Both the position numbers and the translations under genes were made by a program. A stretch of 34,306 nt of DNA from Pseudomonadota bacterium (GTDB lineage Bacteria > Myxococcota_A > Polyangia > Fen-1088): assembly GCA_017881245.1 (NCBI GenBank), contig JADGRC010000481.1, positions 1-34,306 on the forward strand. Reading direction: 5' to 3'. How positions within the stretch are numbered: position 1 is the first letter of the stretch; the number at the start of each line of letters is the position of its first letter. Under the pieces are notes generated by a model. It was not told where the DNA came from, did not search any database, and saw only the letters and a list, made by a program, of their open reading frames with translations. This document shows, one piece after another, positions 3,897 through 11,927 of the stretch.

Positions 3897-5249
3897 TCAC
3901 CCCGGCGGATACGCTTCCGAAGCCATTTCTTGGGTGTCGAGGCCCGCCCACTCGACCTCGGCCGGGACGCGATTGCCGACCGCGCGATCGAGGAGCCGAA
4001 AAAAGCCGTACGACGCACCAAATACGAATAGGACGTTGGTTGTCACGCCGATCAGTTGCGCGACCAGTTGACCCCCATCGCCGAAGAAGAGGCCGCGCAC
4101 GGGCCCCGCGACTCCGTTCCAACCGTCCCCGTATGTCCCGTCAGCCAGCAAGCCCAACGACAGGGCGCCCCACATTCCGCACGCTCCGTGAACGGCCACC
4201 GCACCCACGGGATCGTCGATTCTAAACCGCGTCTCCAGCATCATCACGACGAGGACCACCAGCAGTCCCGCGATGACCCCGATCAAGAGCGCGGCCTGCG
4301 GACTCACAAACGCGCACGGGGCCGTGATAGCCACCAGGCCGCCGAGCAGTCCGTTACACACCATCCCGAGGTCGGGTCGCTTCGACCAGCGCCACCCCAG
4401 CGCAAGGGCAGCTATGGCCCCAGCGCTGGACGACAACATGGTGTTGACCGCGATCGCCGCAATGCGAGGGTCTGAAGCCGAGAGAGTCGATCCGGTGTTG
4501 AAGCCGAACCACCCGAACGCGAGCACGAGCGTCCCGATCACCGTCATCGGCAGGTTATGGCCGGGAATGGCGCTGATGGTCCCGTCGCGTCGAAATTTTC
4601 CCAGGCGCGGTCCGAGCACGATGGTGCCGGCCAGGGCGGTGACACCCCCGGTCATGTGAACCACCGACGAGCCTGCGAAATCCACGTGGCCGTGGCCGAA
4701 TCCGAAACTCACACCCAGGCCCGCAAGCCAACCGCCACCCCAAACCCAGTTGCCGTAAATGGGGTACGTGACCGCGGCGATGAAGACGCCGTAGCAGAGA
4801 AACGCGGCGAATTTCCAGCGCTCGGCCATTGCGCCGGTCGGAATGGTCGCCGCCGTGTCCATGAAAACCGCGGCATACAAGAACATCGCCAAATTGGACG
4901 GATCGCGAGCCACCGTCAGCAACGCGAACTTCGAGCCGCCGAGGAGGCCGAAGAAGTGCCCGCCGACATGAAACCCGATCTCGTGAGCAGTGCCGGACGC
5001 AAGCGAGGGGCCAAGCGCGTCCCATTCGGGAACGCCCCCCAGCATCAAGCCGAAACCAAGAGCCCAGAACGAGAGCACACCGAGCGGGTAGATGACCATG
5101 TTCATGGCCATGGTGTTCACCGCGTTCTTGGCGCGGGTGAACCCCGTCTCCACCATCGCGAAGCCCACTTGCATGAACATCACCAGGAAGGCCCCGAGCA
5201 GGACCCACGCGAGATTGATCGAGTGCGCAAACTCGGTCGGCGTCGTCAT
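3897..5249 (-). CDS. amt: Ammonium transporter (Amt/MEP/Rh family)
   Basis: MTTPTEFAHSINLAWVLLGAFLVMFMQVGFAMVETGFTRAKNAVNTMAMNMVIYPLG, conserved GWFGFNTGS, DDPVGAVAVHGACGMWGALSLGL; C-terminal EVEWAGLDTQEMASEAYP typical of the family. Confidence 0.95.
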   Translation of the reverse strand: MTTPTEFAHSINLAWVLLGAFLVMFMQVGFAMVETGFTRAKNAVNTMAMNMVIYPLGVLSFWALGFGLMLGGVPEWDALGPSLASGTAHEIGFHVGGHFFGLLGGSKFALLTVARDPSNLAMFLYAAVFMDTAATIPTGAMAERWKFAAFLCYGVFIAAVTYPIYGNWVWGGGWLAGLGVSFGFGHGHVDFAGSSVVHMTGGVTALAGTIVLGPRLGKFRRDGTISAIPGHNLPMTVIGTLVLAFGWFGFNTGSTLSASDPRIAAIAVNTMLSSSAGAIAALALGWRWSKRPDLGMVCNGLLGGLVAITAPCAFVSPQAALLIGVIAGLLVVLVVMMLETRFRIDDPVGAVAVHGACGMWGALSLGLLADGTYGDGWNGVAGPVRGLFFGDGGQLVAQLIGVTTNVLFVFGASYGFFRLLDRAVGNRVPAEVEWAGLDTQEMASEAYPPG

Positions 5250-6277
5250 CGGATCTGGCTTCGCGCGGAATTCTGTCGATGAGACTGACCCGGGGCGGAA
5301 TCGGGGCTGGCGGCGTAGCGATGACTCAACCACACCAGGAGACCGAGCGTCGCGAGCACCGCGCCGATGATCACTCCCGTTCGCAACTGGTGTGACACTC
5401 GTGCGCCCCAGTTGGTCTGTGCCGCCGCCGCCCGTTCGGGATCAAGAGCGCGCGCCGGCTCCCGCAGGTCCGCGAGAAACTCGCTCATCGTTTGGTAACG
5501 ATCTCTTGGCGCCCTCTGAATGGCCTTCACGATGACGGCCTCCAGGGCTGGGTCTATCGCCGGCACAAAGTAGCTCGGCGGGCGCGGCTCCTCGTTGGTC
5601 TTCGCCCGAATCAACGAGTGGGGATTGGGCGCAGAATAGGGCAGGTGCCTGGTGAGCATTTCGAAGAGGATGGTTCCCAGCGAGTAGACGTCCGTGCGCG
5701 CGTCGCCGCGCCGGCCGCCGATCTGCTCGGGCGCCATGTAATCAGGGGTGCCCATTGCCGTCGATAGCTTGAACCAGGTCAGGCGCCGTGCGGACTCGTC
5801 GAGCGCGATACCAAAGTCTAGAATCTTCGCCCGGCCGTCACCACCGACCAGAACATTTTCGGGTTTGATGTCACGGTGGATAACCCCCTGCCCATGCAGG
5901 TACACCAACGCCTCGGCAAGCTGCTGGACAATGTCGACCGCCCGGATAGTGGGGGTCGGCTTCTCCTCGTTCATGACGGCGCGGAGTGACCTCCCGTCGA
6001 CGAACTCCAGCGCCAGATACATGCGACTCTTCTCGCGCGGCTGCAGCACCTTGATAATGCCGGGGTGTTCCACCCGCTGGCCGATTTTCTCTTCGCGCTT
6101 GAAGCGCTCGAAGAAGACGACGTCGCTCTCCAGGTGCGGATGCGGAATCTTGAGAGCGACGGTCGCTCCGGTGTCGAGATCCTTCGCCTTGAAAATCGAC
6201 GCCATGCCGCTCTTGGCAAGCAATTCCTCGAGCTCGTATTGATCGAGCCTGTCGCCGACCAGAAGCTCGCGCATCAA
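5246..6277 (-). CDS. Ser/Thr protein kinase (PknB-like) with a C-terminal TM helix
   Basis: VALKI lysine, HRDIKPENV catalytic loop, ILDFGIAL, MGTPDYMAPEQ, DVYSLGTILFEMLT; C-terminal TM GVIIGAVLATLGLLVWLSHRY. Its TGA overlaps the amt ATG (ATGA at 5249-5246). Confidence 0.93.
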   Translation of the reverse strand: MMRELLVGDRLDQYELEELLAKSGMASIFKAKDLDTGATVALKIPHPHLESDVVFFERFKREEKIGQRVEHPGIIKVLQPREKSRMYLALEFVDGRSLRAVMNEEKPTPTIRAVDIVQQLAEALVYLHGQGVIHRDIKPENVLVGGDGRAKILDFGIALDESARRLTWFKLSTAMGTPDYMAPEQIGGRRGDARTDVYSLGTILFEMLTRHLPYSAPNPHSLIRAKTNEEPRPPSYFVPAIDPALEAVIVKAIQRAPRDRYQTMSEFLADLREPARALDPERAAAAQTNWGARVSHQLRTGVIIGAVLATLGLLVWLSHRYAASPDSAPGQSHRQNSARSQIR

Positions 6278-6385
6278 AACACGGGCACGTGGACAAACAT
6301 TTAGAAAAGGGGGCGCCGTCCCTCAATCGGGCTTTCTTGGTGGCGGCATCGTCTATTAACACAGATCACATTGGGCCGGGAACAT

Positions 6386-7228
6386 TCACCGCGCCGCGCG
6401 GGAGCCAACCAATTTCCGCAATCGCCCGAAGACACTTTTCGTCGAGATTCCCGTGTCTTCGTCCGCGAGGGATGTGGGCCCCGTCATTTGGATCACCGCC
6501 GCGGTCACGTTGTCCAGGGTGCCAACCTGATTGGCGGCGTCGACCAACTCCCGACAGGACGATGACGCGTCGCGATCGGATACGATGCGGGCAATGTCGG
6601 ATTCATCGAGTGCGTTATAGAGCCCATCGGTGCACAGGACGAGGGCGTCGCCTTGCTGAACACGTCTCGTGAAGCGATCCAATCCGACGATCAGCTCGCG
6701 TCCCAGGCAGCGCGTAAGAGTCGAGCGGTCTGGATGGTGACGCGCCCGCGCTTCGCTCAACAGGCCCATTCGGATCTTGTCGCCCGTGACCGTGTGATCC
6801 TTCGTGAGCTGGGTGATTGCTCGGTTACGCACCAGGTACAGACGCGAGTCCCCGACGTGAGCGGCCGCCAGTTGCCCCCGCTCGATGGCGACGGCCGTCA
6901 ACGTCGTCCCCATCCCTCGAAGCTCCGTCACCACGACGGAGAAATCGTAAACGTCAATGTTAGCTTGTTGCACCGCCCGCCACAGCCGCTTTCCAGGGCT
7001 CAGCTGGGCTGACTGTTCCTGGTAAGAGCGAAAAGTGGACTCGACAGCCATCCGGCTGGCCGTCGCGCCCCCTGCCTGACCAGACACGCCGTCGGCCAGG
7101 ACCACCAAGGCCCCGGATTCGCCCATCAACTGGTGGCGGGCAAAGTCCTGATTGTCCGGCCGCTCGGTACCGGTGTCCGATACGACGGCCACCTCCAACG
7201 CGAAATCTGCTTTGGAGGTGGTCGCCAC
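6386..7228 (-). CDS. PP2C-family protein serine/threonine phosphatase
   Basis: VSDTGTERPDNQDF, VVLADGVSGQAGG, AAHVGDSRLYLVRN, LVLCTDGLYNALDESDI, LDNVTAAVIQ. GTG start at 7228 preferred over 7378 because the longer form overlaps the APC permease by ~120 nt. Confidence 0.9.
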   Translation of the reverse strand: MATTSKADFALEVAVVSDTGTERPDNQDFARHQLMGESGALVVLADGVSGQAGGATASRMAVESTFRSYQEQSAQLSPGKRLWRAVQQANIDVYDFSVVVTELRGMGTTLTAVAIERGQLAAAHVGDSRLYLVRNRAITQLTKDHTVTGDKIRMGLLSEARARHHPDRSTLTRCLGRELIVGLDRFTRRVQQGDALVLCTDGLYNALDESDIARIVSDRDASSSCRELVDAANQVGTLDNVTAAVIQMTGPTSLADEDTGISTKSVFGRLRKLVGSRAAR

Positions 7229-7256
7229 GTTGTCAGGTCGAGGTGGCGGCGCGCTT

Positions 7257-9149
7257 TCAGACTCCGCCGAAGGCTTGCGCCGCCGCCTTCTTTTCCGCGA
7301 AGACCGCCTTCCCCTTTGCCTTGCTCGACCGCGCGAAGAAGACCGCGCCGTAAATGCCCCACGTGCCGCAGACCGCAAGCGCGATATAGGGTTCCTTCCA
7401 ACTCATTCCCGAAACCGTAAAGGGCCCCACAAGATAGAAGAGCATGCACAGCAGATTCGCTACCAACCCGAAGATCGGCACGAACATGTGCTTGAACCCG
7501 CTGAAGGTGTGGTGTTCGCGAAAAGCAACGATCGCGATCACGCATGTGAGCATGTAAAGCAGGAACGTTCCGAAGTTGCTGATGAGCGTGACGATGACCA
7601 GCGTGTTTGGCAGCTTCGCCAAAGTAGCGGGATCAAAGAAACCGAAGCTGTACCAGATGTTGTGGTACTTCGCGTCGAGCGGCGCCGGAGTGGTTCCACC
7701 CAGGTACACCGTCACAGTGACGATGCCGATGATCGCTGAGAGGATGGCCAGCGTCCAAATCGCCCGATGGGGTGTCAGGTTCTTACCGTGGAGCATGCCG
7801 AAGTGCTCGGGCACCTCCTCGTCCCTGCCCATCGCGTAGGTCACCCGCGCCCCTGTGTTCAGGCAGGCCAGGGTGGTCCCAATGAGCGCGAGGAACACCG
7901 TGAACGCCTCGACCAGCATGAAGGCCCGTCCCGCCGAGTAGCTCCCGAACAACCAGGTTCCGACGATGACCATCATGTCACCGATCGGCGCACCCGACGC
8001 CGCGGCGTTGGGCATGTTGTAGCCCGAATTGAGGAAATAATTCGCCGCGAAATACTCGAACAGGTAGCACACCAGCCCCTGAATACCGAGGGACAGGAGC
8101 ACGGCCCGCGGGATATCGCGCTTGGCGTTCTTGGCTTCCTCGCCCATTGAGGTGACCGACTCGAAGCCGACCAGAATCAGGATCGCGATGCACGCCTGAA
8201 TGAAAATAAACGAGAATCCGTGTGGCCCTGTCACGGAGCTGGCTGTGGCGTGGAACTTGAAATGCGGTGTGAGATCCTTGGGGTGATCGGCGTCGGACGG
8301 CTCCAAGGTCGTGGCTTGGTCCGGAGCGTACGACAGAAGGAATGGCACCGGGTTGCCGTCCTTCATCTCGGGGACTGGGTTCCCCGCCGCGTCCATCTTG
8401 TTCTGCAGCACCGGCTGTCCACCGCTGTCGAGCTTGGGCTTTCCGTTTTCCATCACCGGTTCCTGCGCGACGACAAAATCGACCGGCGTGCCGTTTATTA
8501 ACTGTAGTCCGCGCGCCCCCTCCGGATGATTCGCCCGATAGGCGATGGCCATGATGGCGAACACCACCAGCGCTGAAATCTGGACGATGTTGATCACCAT
8601 GTTCACCACGGTGGTGCCCGTGACGCCGCGATACGCGATAAAGGCGACACCCAACGCGAACGCGAAGCAGAACAGATACATGAAAAGGGGACTGTTGAAT
8701 CCACCGCTGAACGTGTCCGGAAAGAATTGATTCAGAAGGTAGCCACTGATGAGAGCGGTCACGCCCACCATGCAACCGGGGTACACCCAGTAGTAAAGGT
8801 GGCTGGCCCACCCGGTGATGAACTTCGCCAACCGCGCAAACTTGTAAGCGTGCGTCTTGCTGAGGAAGGCCTGTTCGGCGAAGAAGTACGACGAGCCCGC
8901 GCCCGGGTACAACTTCGACAGCTCCGAGTAGCTGATCGCCGTCGCGAAGCAAAGCGCCAAGGCAGCAACGATCCCGAACCACATCGCCGAGCCGGCCATC
9001 GGAGCTCCGTAGAGCGACTGAATCTGGTACGTAAGCCAGAGGAACGCGCCTGGCGCGATCAGGGCCATCGCGTTGATTGTCAGACCCGTCAGACCCAACG
9101 TCGCGCGGCTCGGCGTGGGGCTGCTCGAAGCAGCGTTAACATCAGCCAT
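7257..9149 (-). CDS. APC superfamily amino acid permease with a long hydrophilic insertion
   Basis: ATG at 9149 with GGAG upstream; LGLTGLTINAMALIAPGAFLWLTYQ, YPGAGSSYFFAEQAF, FESVTSMGEEAKNAKRDIPRAVLLSL; multiple TM helices. Confidence 0.9.
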   Translation of the reverse strand: MADVNAASSSPTPSRATLGLTGLTINAMALIAPGAFLWLTYQIQSLYGAPMAGSAMWFGIVAALALCFATAISYSELSKLYPGAGSSYFFAEQAFLSKTHAYKFARLAKFITGWASHLYYWVYPGCMVGVTALISGYLLNQFFPDTFSGGFNSPLFMYLFCFAFALGVAFIAYRGVTGTTVVNMVINIVQISALVVFAIMAIAYRANHPEGARGLQLINGTPVDFVVAQEPVMENGKPKLDSGGQPVLQNKMDAAGNPVPEMKDGNPVPFLLSYAPDQATTLEPSDADHPKDLTPHFKFHATASSVTGPHGFSFIFIQACIAILILVGFESVTSMGEEAKNAKRDIPRAVLLSLGIQGLVCYLFEYFAANYFLNSGYNMPNAAASGAPIGDMMVIVGTWLFGSYSAGRAFMLVEAFTVFLALIGTTLACLNTGARVTYAMGRDEEVPEHFGMLHGKNLTPHRAIWTLAILSAIIGIVTVTVYLGGTTPAPLDAKYHNIWYSFGFFDPATLAKLPNTLVIVTLISNFGTFLLYMLTCVIAIVAFREHHTFSGFKHMFVPIFGLVANLLCMLFYLVGPFTVSGMSWKEPYIALAVCGTWGIYGAVFFARSSKAKGKAVFAEKKAAAQAFGGV

Positions 9150-9320
9150 CTGGTCGCTCCTTGCGTGAAGTGGTTTCGTTTCCAAACACGGGGCGTTGTC
9201 TCTGCCCGGTGACCAAACTTTACGGAGCGCTGATGAACCGGCGGTTTCCGACACACAAATTCGACGTAACTTCCGAGCGCATCAACGCAAAGAATAGCCC
9301 TTCCCAGAGGTCTGGATTAT

Positions 9321-9352: not shown

Positions 9353-9365
9353 CTGCATAATGCAG
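9353..9365. promoter_or_regulatory. Odd palindrome CTGCAT-A-ATGCAG
   Basis: 6-bp perfect arms around a central A, 4 nt after the preceding inverted repeat. Confidence 0.45.
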
Positions 9366-9533
9366 GATCGCCATGGTTGGATCCCCGCATTTTGCAAGTT
9401 GTTAGGGACGCCAAATTGTTTGTGCCTTTGGACACGGGCCACGTCTGAGGTCGGCTCACACATCCTGTCGAATGAGACTCCGCCGTGGATCCTGTTTTTC
9501 ATTGCGGCCTGCTGCACACTTCTGCACGCCTGC

Positions 9534-9550
9534 CATTGCAATATGCAATG
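9534..9550. promoter_or_regulatory. Palindrome CATTGCA-ATA-TGCAATG
   Basis: 7-bp perfect arms with a 3-nt centre, upstream of the alpha-CTD-like gene; shares the TGCA core with 9353-9365. Confidence 0.5.
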
Positions 9551-9666
9551 CCGGCTAAGCGGCTACGAGCCTAAGTGGCTCTCGGAGCCGGACCGAGTCC
9601 ACACCGATCTATGGTGCGTGACTTGGGTACGTGACTTGCTCTGATTCGGCTGGGGAGGCAGCAGCG

Positions 9667-10914
9667 ATGAATGCGGCCCTAGACGTTCTGCCGAATCCGC
9701 AATCACCTTCACGAAGTCGCAAACACGAAGGCGAGCCGCGGAACTCTAACGAGAGACGATACCCGCGGTCGGGTGGGACCTTGCTTCCATCCGAGCTTGA
9801 GTATCTTCGCGTGGGAGACGATATCGGGTTGGGGCCAAGGACTCTGATGTCCGGCGAATCGCCGGAGATGAGAGCCAGGTTGGGACGTCGGGTGGTCGAA
9901 CGGCTCGCGAAGACCGCCCATGCGCTGCCTCGACATATCTTGGAGCTCGAGGTTCCCCCTCCCCCAATCGTACTGGACACGTTCCTGATCGATGAGCGAA
10001 CGCGGCGCGCCTTGGAGAGGATGCAACCCTACCGCGACACTCAACCCTGGACGCTGGCTCGGTACCTGGAGCTCCCCAGGTTTGGACCACGGTGTTTGGT
10101 TGATCTCTTGGCGGCTCGCGCCGAAAAGTTGGCGACACAGGAACATACCAACCACACTGCGCCTTCAGTTGGAGCGAAGGCGATTGATTGGGGTGGCACG
10201 CGGGTGTCGCTTGCATCCGAGACCGTGATGGTGCTGGATCTGATATCGCGGTTCCTGAGCCAGCGCACGCCGGTGGGGATGGAACAGATTCACAAGCACG
10301 CGTGCGACCACGGACTCAAGGTCCCGGCTGCGACGCTTGCAGATCTGCTGCTTCTGTATCGAAAGAGCAAACGGACGCCGCCATTTCGAATCGCTAGTCT
10401 GGCTGGGGCCGAGGTGGCTGTGCGCCCTCATGAGCAACGATCCTCGGGCGCAATATCGATCACGGCGACCCATTTCATTGATTGGTGGGGACTTGCGCCC
10501 GTGGAGTCGGTCGCCAGCCGATCCCGGCTGGTCACGGGATGCGCAATATCCGAACGAACCATCCACAATGTTTTGGAGGTATCGAAGGGGTTCGTATGGC
10601 TGGATGATGAAAGGACTTGGTTCACGTTCCGACAACGCGACAGCTCCCTGCTTCGACTGTTGACGAAAATGCTCACGATCGGCGAGTGGTTCGACCTCGT
10701 TCGTGTTCAACTCCAAGTTGGCAAATGCCAAGCGCAGGTGCGTGATGTACCGCGCTCGGTGTTCGCACGCTATCTGCGGACCGCTGTGAACTGCCAAATC
10801 CGAGCGACTTGGGCGCGGCGCAGACGGCCCGACGACGGGCCAGATCTCGAGCGACCGCTGCTGCCTGTACGTCTGGCGTCTCCTCGGTCGCACTATGGCC
10901 GGGACCTTCGATGA
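9667..10914 (+). CDS. RNA polymerase alpha-CTD-like helix-hairpin-helix protein with downstream helix-turn-helix-like segments
   Basis: ATG at 9667 preceded by GGGGAGG. LDTFLIDERTRRALERMQPYRDTQPWTLARYLELPRFGPRCLVDLLAA reads onto the alpha-CTD consensus LDxLxLSxRxxNCLKRxx...LLxIxNFGxKSLxEVxxxL. Later VSKGFVWLDDERTWFTFRQRDSSLLRLLTKMLTIGEWFDLVRVQLQV resembles winged-helix/sigma-region-4-like modules. No polymerase core domains. Confidence 0.65.
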   Translation: MNAALDVLPNPQSPSRSRKHEGEPRNSNERRYPRSGGTLLPSELEYLRVGDDIGLGPRTLMSGESPEMRARLGRRVVERLAKTAHALPRHILELEVPPPPIVLDTFLIDERTRRALERMQPYRDTQPWTLARYLELPRFGPRCLVDLLAARAEKLATQEHTNHTAPSVGAKAIDWGGTRVSLASETVMVLDLISRFLSQRTPVGMEQIHKHACDHGLKVPAATLADLLLLYRKSKRTPPFRIASLAGAEVAVRPHEQRSSGAISITATHFIDWWGLAPVESVASRSRLVTGCAISERTIHNVLEVSKGFVWLDDERTWFTFRQRDSSLLRLLTKMLTIGEWFDLVRVQLQVGKCQAQVRDVPRSVFARYLRTAVNCQIRATWARRRRPDDGPDLERPLLPVRLASPRSHYGRDLR

Positions 10915-11927
10915 TCGACGTCGAGCCAGGTTCGAGGGACCAATCGACTCCTCAAGCAGATGTCGCGCGCCGACGTGTGCGCACCCTGACAGACGTGACC
11001 CCAAAATCACAAAATCCCCGAATGGCGAGGGTCATTGCGACCATTCGACGTGCGGCCCACTCGAACGCTCCGATCCTTCTTCGGGGCGAAACCGGCACGG
11101 GGAAATCGACCTTCGCTGAAGTTCTTCACAGCGAGAGCCCCCGACGTGCAAGCCCATTCGTCGTCGTCGATTGTCCGACTCTATCTGATGCCCTGTTTGC
11201 AAGTGAGTTGTTCGGGCACGGAACAGAGACAGCTGCTGTAACTCAGGATCAGGCAGGACGCATCGAGGCGGCTACTGGCGGCACCCTGTTTCTGGACGAA
11301 ATCGGAGAGATGCCACTGTCGGTCCAATCGAAGTTGTTGAGGTTCCTCGACAAGAGGAGGTACGAAGAAACCGGTGGCGGCCAGTCCTCGAGTTGCGACG
11401 TGCGAGTTGTCGCGGCGACCAACCGACGCATTGAAGACGACGTCAAGAATGGCCGTTTTCGGCTGGATCTGTTTTTTCGCCTGAACGTGGTCGAGATTGA
11501 TATCCCACCACTAAGAGAACGACCTGAAGACATTCTGCCGATAGCGCGCCACTTCATCGAGGTTTTTTCGGCGCAACACGGGAGACCCGTTCAACAGCTG
11601 TCAAAGGGCGCCGTCCAGCTGCTTTCCTCGTACGCTTGGCCTGGAAACGTGCGCGAGCTGAGAAACACGATTGAGCAGGTGGTCATGTTGTGTTCTGCCA
11701 ACGTTATCGAAGCCGAGGCATTTCCTGTTCGACTGGCAGGGGCTACACGCCCGCAACCCTCTATCGGTGGGGATTTCGCGGTCGACGAAATCGAACAGGA
11801 GCACATCATGCGGGTCATCCGGCGGACCCCGACGCTGGAAAGGGCCGCCGTCATCCTTGGTATCGACTACACGACTCTCTGGCGCAAGCGAAAACGCTAT
11901 CTGAGTGCCGATTCCGTGTCAGGATAG
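10911..11927 (+). CDS. NtrC-family AAA+ ATPase with Fis-type HTH, lacking GAFTGA and any receiver/sensor domain
   Basis: Walker A GETGTGKS, Walker B GGTLFLDEIGEMP, LDLFFRLNVVEIDIPPLRERPEDI, YAWPGNVRELRNTIEQ, C-terminal TLERAAVILGIDYTTLWRKRKRY. The GAFTGA position reads GHGTETAAVTQDQAGRIE. ATG overlaps the upstream TGA (ATGA, 10911-10914). Confidence 0.88.
   Translation: MIDVEPGSRDQSTPQADVARRRVRTLTDVTPKSQNPRMARVIATIRRAAHSNAPILLRGETGTGKSTFAEVLHSESPRRASPFVVVDCPTLSDALFASELFGHGTETAAVTQDQAGRIEAATGGTLFLDEIGEMPLSVQSKLLRFLDKRRYEETGGGQSSSCDVRVVAATNRRIEDDVKNGRFRLDLFFRLNVVEIDIPPLRERPEDILPIARHFIEVFSAQHGRPVQQLSKGAVQLLSSYAWPGNVRELRNTIEQVVMLCSANVIEAEAFPVRLAGATRPQPSIGGDFAVDEIEQEHIMRVIRRTPTLERAAVILGIDYTTLWRKRKRYLSADSVSG

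What the first reader, a model, noticed from the sequence alone, without database searches (positions are those of the whole stretch)
9667..11927. Translationally coupled pair: RNA polymerase alpha-CTD mimic plus GAFTGA-less enhancer-type ATPase
The alpha-CTD-like gene stop and the ATPase start share ATGA at 10911-10914, so the two are probably co-translated. One protein carries what looks like the RNAP alpha-CTD HhH fold without polymerase; the other is an AAA+ remodeler that has lost its sigma54 contact. A plausible model is that the alpha-CTD-like partner supplies the promoter or polymerase contact that the ATPase lacks, giving a two-part, sigma54-independent ATP-driven activator. I am not aware of a described system of this kind.
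Basis: inference. Interest (0 to 1): 0.85.

Follow-up and report, generated by a model that had tools for sequence, protein, structure and literature searches.

The report
Sigma54-uncoupled regulator beside alpha-CTD-like gene
In one uncultured myxobacterium a DNA-binding ATPase that has lost both the switch and the polymerase-contact loops of its potassium-regulator relatives lies in an operon with an RNA-polymerase-alpha-like protein; it appears to share its relatives' DNA sites, so it is more likely a local competitor or feedback regulator than half of a new two-part activator.

Summary
ORF 9667-10914 (P0001, 415 aa) and ORF 10911-11927 (P0002, 338 aa) overlap by ATGA, and P0002 is an enhancer-binding-protein (EBP) ATPase without GAFTGA. 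The alpha-CTD resemblance is weak but real in profile searches: the only natural protein in the PDB sequences found with the family profile is an RNAP alpha subunit. Pfam and fold searches do not confirm it.

The two-part-activator reading is not supported. P0001's family occurs in 13 of 18 genomes of its bacterial family and in none of the other 300 genomes searched in the class. It sits at a nitrogen locus (PII, amt, Ser/Thr kinase, PP2C). None of 14 other copies has an EBP next door; 7 lie directly behind a PII gene.

P0002 is a fast-evolving member of a kdp-linked, NtrC-type response-regulator subfamily. It lost the receiver domain and both sigma54-facing loops, but kept the ATPase motifs and the recognition helix. 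A rare palindrome, TGCA-N3-TGCA (34 in 6.17 Mb), marks the subfamily: two copies precede P0001, two precede one paralog, one follows the other, and one precedes kdpA.

Most likely P0002 is a sigma54-uncoupled binder of its paralogs' sites, acting as competitor or feedback regulator. Function is inferred. GAFTGA-less EBPs are already known (Caulobacter and Rhodobacter NtrC, VpsR).

The parts
9667..10914 (+). P0001, 415 aa: alpha-CTD-like helix-hairpin-helix domain (about residues 84-156) followed by poorly conserved regions; lacks the C-terminal segment present in homologs L021 and L025
9916..10134 (+). alpha-CTD-like domain of P0001 (residues 84-156); R111 aligns with R265 of E. coli alpha, G140 with G296
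10911..11927 (+). P0002, 338 aa: AAA+ sigma54-activator-type core, lid and Fis-type HTH; no receiver domain; loops L1 (GAFTGA) and L2 altered
10911..10914 (+). ATGA stop/start overlap of the two genes
11214..11252 (+). degenerate L1 region (GHGTETAAVTQDQ) where GAFTGA should be
11358..11396 (+). degenerate L2 (pre-sensor I) loop, 6 of 8 subfamily-invariant residues changed
9354..9364 (+). palindrome TGCATAATGCA, probable upstream activating site of the P0002 subfamily
9386..9396 (+). one-mismatch copy CGCATTTTGCA, 32 bp from the previous site
9537..9547 (+). palindrome TGCAATATGCA, probable upstream activating site
9625..9640 (+). sigma54-like -24/-12 element GGGTACGTGACTTGCT ahead of P0001
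12075..14255 (-). glutamine synthetase-like gene (glnN/GSIII type, by reading of the sequence only; not scanned against Pfam); neighbour
7257..9254 (-). amino-acid permease-like gene, divergent neighbour (by reading of the sequence)
3897..5333 (-). ammonium transporter (amt)
5246..6277 (-). Ser/Thr protein kinase
6386..7378 (-). PP2C phosphatase

Best explanation
P0002 is a diverged duplicate of a kdp-linked, NtrC-type response regulator. It lost the receiver domain (so it is not controlled by phosphorylation) and the two loops that push on sigma54 (so it cannot open sigma54 promoters). It kept the ATPase core, the oligomerisation elements and the DNA recognition helix. It therefore most likely sits on, or co-assembles with its paralogs at, TGCA-N3-TGCA sites. 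These include the three sites before its own operon, which also carries a sigma54-like promoter. There it would compete with or damp the functional paralogs, as negative feedback. P0001 is a divergent alpha-CTD-like DNA- or polymerase-binding protein of an otherwise PII-linked nitrogen-locus family, which P0002 joined secondarily. Shown by sequence: the domain losses, the shared site motif and the site positions. Inferred: binding, competition and any joint action with P0001.
For: Subfamily placement: 13 relatives at 318-380 bits against at most 246 bits for other EBPs. Those read in full begin with a receiver domain and carry GAFTGA or GSFTGA. Changes at subfamily-invariant columns are enriched in L1/L2 (8 of 17, against 19 of 109 elsewhere in the AAA+ core, Fisher P 0.01); Walker B, sensor I and sensor II segments have none, and four other subfamily members have none in the loops. 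Sites: TGCANNNTGCA occurs 34 times in 6.17 Mb; two precede P0001, two (32 bp apart) precede paralog C495, one follows paralog C35 with a one-mismatch partner 31 bp on, and one lies 360 bp before kdpA with a sigma54-like promoter between. Tandem copies 30-31 bp apart also occur in G006 about 310-340 bp before kdpA (L096), and in G016 and G015 (L091, L092). kdpA, kdpB, kdpC or kdpD neighbour several relatives. Sigma54-like element at 9625.
Against: The motif was first seen in this window, so only the sites at C495, C35, kdpA and in relatives are independent evidence. No binding or transcription data. The sigma54-like element scores 10, a score reached 3 times in the 34-kb window on both strands, so it could be chance. 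GAFTGA-less EBPs can be real activators at sigma70 promoters. Long branch (0.8) and low GC3 (0.62-0.65, neighbours mostly 0.72-0.80) could mean relaxed constraint.
Confidence: 0.45

Rival explanations
1. P0002 is a stand-alone sigma70-type regulator: like Rhodobacter capsulatus or Caulobacter NtrC it binds upstream sites and activates or represses housekeeping-polymerase promoters (for example its own operon, the divergent permease or the glutamine synthetase) without touching sigma54.
For: L1/GAFTGA loss with an intact ATPase core matches those proteins (PMC10274813); the nitrogen-locus setting is similar; no sigma54-like element scoring 8 or more was found on the permease strand between 9100 and 9700.
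Against: Those proteins keep the receiver domain and need phosphorylation (RcNtrC) or use its aspartate; P0002 has none. A sigma54-like promoter precedes the operon.
Confidence: 0.25
2. One reading: P0001 supplies the polymerase or promoter contact and P0002 the ATP-driven force, a two-part sigma54-independent activator.
For: Operon overlap; alpha-CTD-like profile match; contact loops lost in P0002.
Against: The pairing is found in one genome only; 0 of 14 other P0001-family copies have an EBP next door, and P0002 relatives never lie beside a P0001 homolog. The P0001 family occurs alone, half of the time behind PII.
Confidence: 0.08
3. The pair is decaying: P0001 lost its C-terminal segment and P0002 is a degenerating duplicate with no present function.
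For: Low GC3, long branch (0.8), missing C-terminal part of P0001 compared with L021 and L025.
Against: Both frames are open; Walker B, sensor and HTH segments are nearly unchanged while losses concentrate in the sigma54-contact loops; three sites and a promoter-like element are kept upstream.
Confidence: 0.15

Closest known systems
GAFTGA-less NtrC of Caulobacter crescentus and Rhodobacter capsulatus (PMC10274813)
   Same: EBP with L1/GAFTGA deleted, ATPase core kept, nitrogen-related setting
   Different: They keep the receiver domain and a partner kinase; P0002 has neither, comes from a kdp-linked subfamily and also changed L2
VpsR of Vibrio cholerae
   Same: EBP without GAFTGA acting at sigma70 promoters (as cited in PMC10274813)
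   Different: Keeps its N-terminal domain; no alpha-CTD-like partner
kdp-linked NtrC-type response regulators of the same bacterial family (own C35 and C495, relatives)
   Same: 52-58% identity, similar HTH recognition helix, same candidate sites
   Different: They have a receiver domain and GAFTGA/GSFTGA
RNA polymerase alpha C-terminal domain (PF03118)
   Same: Profile match over the helix-hairpin-helix, R265 and G296 positions in register
   Different: Not fused to alpha-NTD, below Pfam threshold, loop in place of the middle helix in the AF2 model, no Foldseek match
Large alpha-CTD plus sigma-region-4 proteins (L023, L026)
   Same: Share a later domain with P0001 (phmmer, residues about 266-362)
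   Different: Carry a true PF03118 domain and sit next to a HATPase_c_3 gene

Membership tests
Sigma54 activator (bEBP) | AAA+ core with Walker A/B, sensors, lid and Fis-type HTH | tested here: met
Sigma54 activator (bEBP) | GAFTGA motif in loop L1 | tested here: not met
NtrC-type response regulator (its own subfamily) | N-terminal receiver domain | tested here: not met
   AAA+ domain starts at residue 34
GAFTGA-less sigma70-type EBP (RcNtrC, Caulobacter NtrC, VpsR) | L1 loss with ATPase core kept | tested here: met
   PMC10274813
GAFTGA-less sigma70-type EBP (RcNtrC, Caulobacter NtrC, VpsR) | regulation of sigma70 promoters | not testable with these tools
   needs transcription assays
RNAP alpha-CTD (PF03118) | match to the curated profile | tested here: not met
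RNAP alpha-CTD (PF03118) | detectable homology by family-profile comparison | tested here: met
   (weak: E about 0.01; hhalign probability 60)
RNAP alpha-CTD (PF03118) | alpha-CTD fold | tested here: inconclusive
   AF2 of the short homolog pLDDT 85 but no Foldseek match; P0001 model poor
Conserved two-gene system | the two genes are neighbours in other genomes | tested here: not met

The most novel reading that the evidence does not exclude
A receiver-less, sigma54-uncoupled EBP has been recruited next to a PII-linked alpha-CTD-like protein and the two act together at TGCA-N3-TGCA sites, with P0001 bringing or mimicking the polymerase alpha contact, so that potassium and nitrogen control are linked through a new kind of ATP-driven regulator.
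Probability: 0.08. Interest if true: 0.85.

Novelty: new variant of a known kind. Interest (0 to 1): 0.45.

Why it matters
It gives a natural test of what an EBP does once both its switch and its sigma54 contact are gone but its DNA sites are kept, with the target sites, the intact paralogs and a reference promoter (kdp) all named. It also brings out an undescribed PII-linked alpha-CTD-like protein family confined, in this search, to one myxobacterial family.

Tried and rejected
Foldseek with both models gave no significant match; the P0001 model is poor (pLDDT 52.6). Single-sequence PDB search with P0001 gave only antibody chance hits. Laying the whole genome in the Python box was not available. 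Paper searches for an alpha-CTD/PII link or dominant-negative hetero-hexamers gave nothing. A frameshift origin of the ATGA overlap was looked at in three frames and gave no sign of a lost continuation.

Full report
What is there. The two ORFs and the ATGA overlap are exactly as described. The window is a contig of a 6.17-Mb draft genome. Named near relatives recovered by the P0001 family are Myxococcales MAGs from fen samples. P0002 has the sigma54-activator AAA+ domain, lid and Fis-type HTH, begins at the AAA+ domain and has no receiver.

P0001. It has no Pfam or NCBIfam match. Relatives occur in its genus and family: 13 of 18 family genomes, and in a search of 318 genomes of the class only in that family. 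(Two of the matches, in G004, are only to the later domain or weak.) Some relatives are long like P0001 (G001, G003, G007); in others only the roughly 120-residue alpha-CTD-like part exists. The family profile hits a single PDB sequence, RNAP alpha (E 0.0098; 0.0094 with the short forms, where a designed repeat protein also appears at 0.011). hhalign with RpoA CTDs of the same bacterial family gives probability 60. The residue equivalent to R265 is nearly invariant; N268 is kept in most but is R114 in P0001. Fold search does not confirm it. I call it probable, divergent alpha-CTD homology.

Its neighbours. Among 14 other copies read with context, 7 lie directly behind a PII gene on the same strand (L021, L024, L027, L028, L049, L050, L054) and most are near amt, the Ser/Thr kinase or PP2C. 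The window has the same amt, kinase and PP2C genes but no PII. No copy has an EBP next door; the nearest, NtrBC in G001 (L021), is about 4 kb away with amt between. Context was limited by contig ends in several cases.

P0002. It belongs to a subfamily with one member in 11 of the relatives and two in the own genome (C35, C495), at 318-380 bits, well apart from other EBPs. Those members have a receiver domain and GAFTGA/GSFTGA. In the tree P0002 is a single long branch (0.8; placement within the subfamily unresolved). Of 150 subfamily-invariant columns 32 are changed in P0002; they are over-represented in loops L1 and L2 (8 of 17, against 19 of 109, P 0.01), while Walker B, sensor I and sensor II are untouched and 13 of 14 in the HTH segment are kept. 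Overall HTH identity to the paralogs (51%) is no higher than that of the core; only the recognition helix stands out (69-75%). Several relatives lie beside kdpA, kdpB, kdpC or kdpD.

Sites. Palindromes in the 412-bp gap before P0001 led to TGCAWWWTGCA, which occurs in the genome only twice, both there. The relaxed TGCANNNTGCA occurs 34 times (reversed control 86). Independent of the window, two lie 32 bp apart before paralog C495, one follows paralog C35 with a one-mismatch partner 31 bp on, and one precedes kdpA. Chance of two sites in the 500 bp before the two paralogs: about 1.5e-5 (the choice of interval was mine and made after seeing the sites). Among 12 further sites checked, none had a partner within 100 bp. 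Relatives show pairs 30-31 bp apart: in L096 about 310-340 bp before kdpA; in L091 and L092 the gene that follows was not annotated here. A site pair 22 bp apart also lies between NtrB and amt in G001 (L021), so the motif may not be exclusive to this subfamily. A sigma54-like element at 9625-9640 lies about 80 bp after the nearest site, comparable with the own kdp promoter (site 656, element 708).

Mechanism. Shown: loss of receiver and sigma54 loops, retention of core and recognition helix, shared candidate sites. Inferred: P0002 binds those sites and competes with or damps its paralogs; the operon may itself answer to them. Precedents for EBPs without GAFTGA acting at sigma70 promoters (PMC10274813) make the sigma70-regulator rival serious. 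Nothing shows that P0001 and P0002 act together.

Verdict. A real, unusual arrangement, but a new variant of a known kind rather than a new class of activator.

Noticed in passing
L021, L024, L027, L028, L049, L050, L054: The alpha-CTD-like gene lies directly behind a PII (glnB/glnK) gene in 7 of 14 copies: a PII-linked family confined, in 318 genomes searched, to one myxobacterial family.
   Followed up: partly
own genome C456:656-666 and 708-723 (L208); L096 8617/8648: kdp operons in this family appear to be driven by sigma54 promoters with TGCA-N3-TGCA sites and an NtrC-type response regulator instead of, or besides, KdpE.
   Followed up: partly
L165, L166, L167 (own genome C272, C443, C397): Three other EBPs of this genome have altered or missing GAFTGA: GAHSQA, GAHSTA, and one without it.
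   Followed up: no
L023:4558-8015 and L026:2076-6260: A HATPase_c_3 gene is followed by a large protein with a true RNAP alpha-CTD domain and, in L023, a weak sigma-70 region 4 match; possibly a mobile or defence-type pair.
   Followed up: no
window 9667-11927: GC3 of both genes (0.65, 0.62) is below that of the neighbouring genes (mostly 0.72-0.80).
   Followed up: partly
window 3897-7378; L028 10196-12542: An amt gene adjoins a Ser/Thr kinase gene, with a PP2C gene nearby, in the window and several relatives.
   Followed up: no
L021:3737-3769: Two one-mismatch relatives of the window palindrome (TGCANNNTGCA) 22 bp apart between NtrB and amt in the same-genus genome G001.
   Followed up: no
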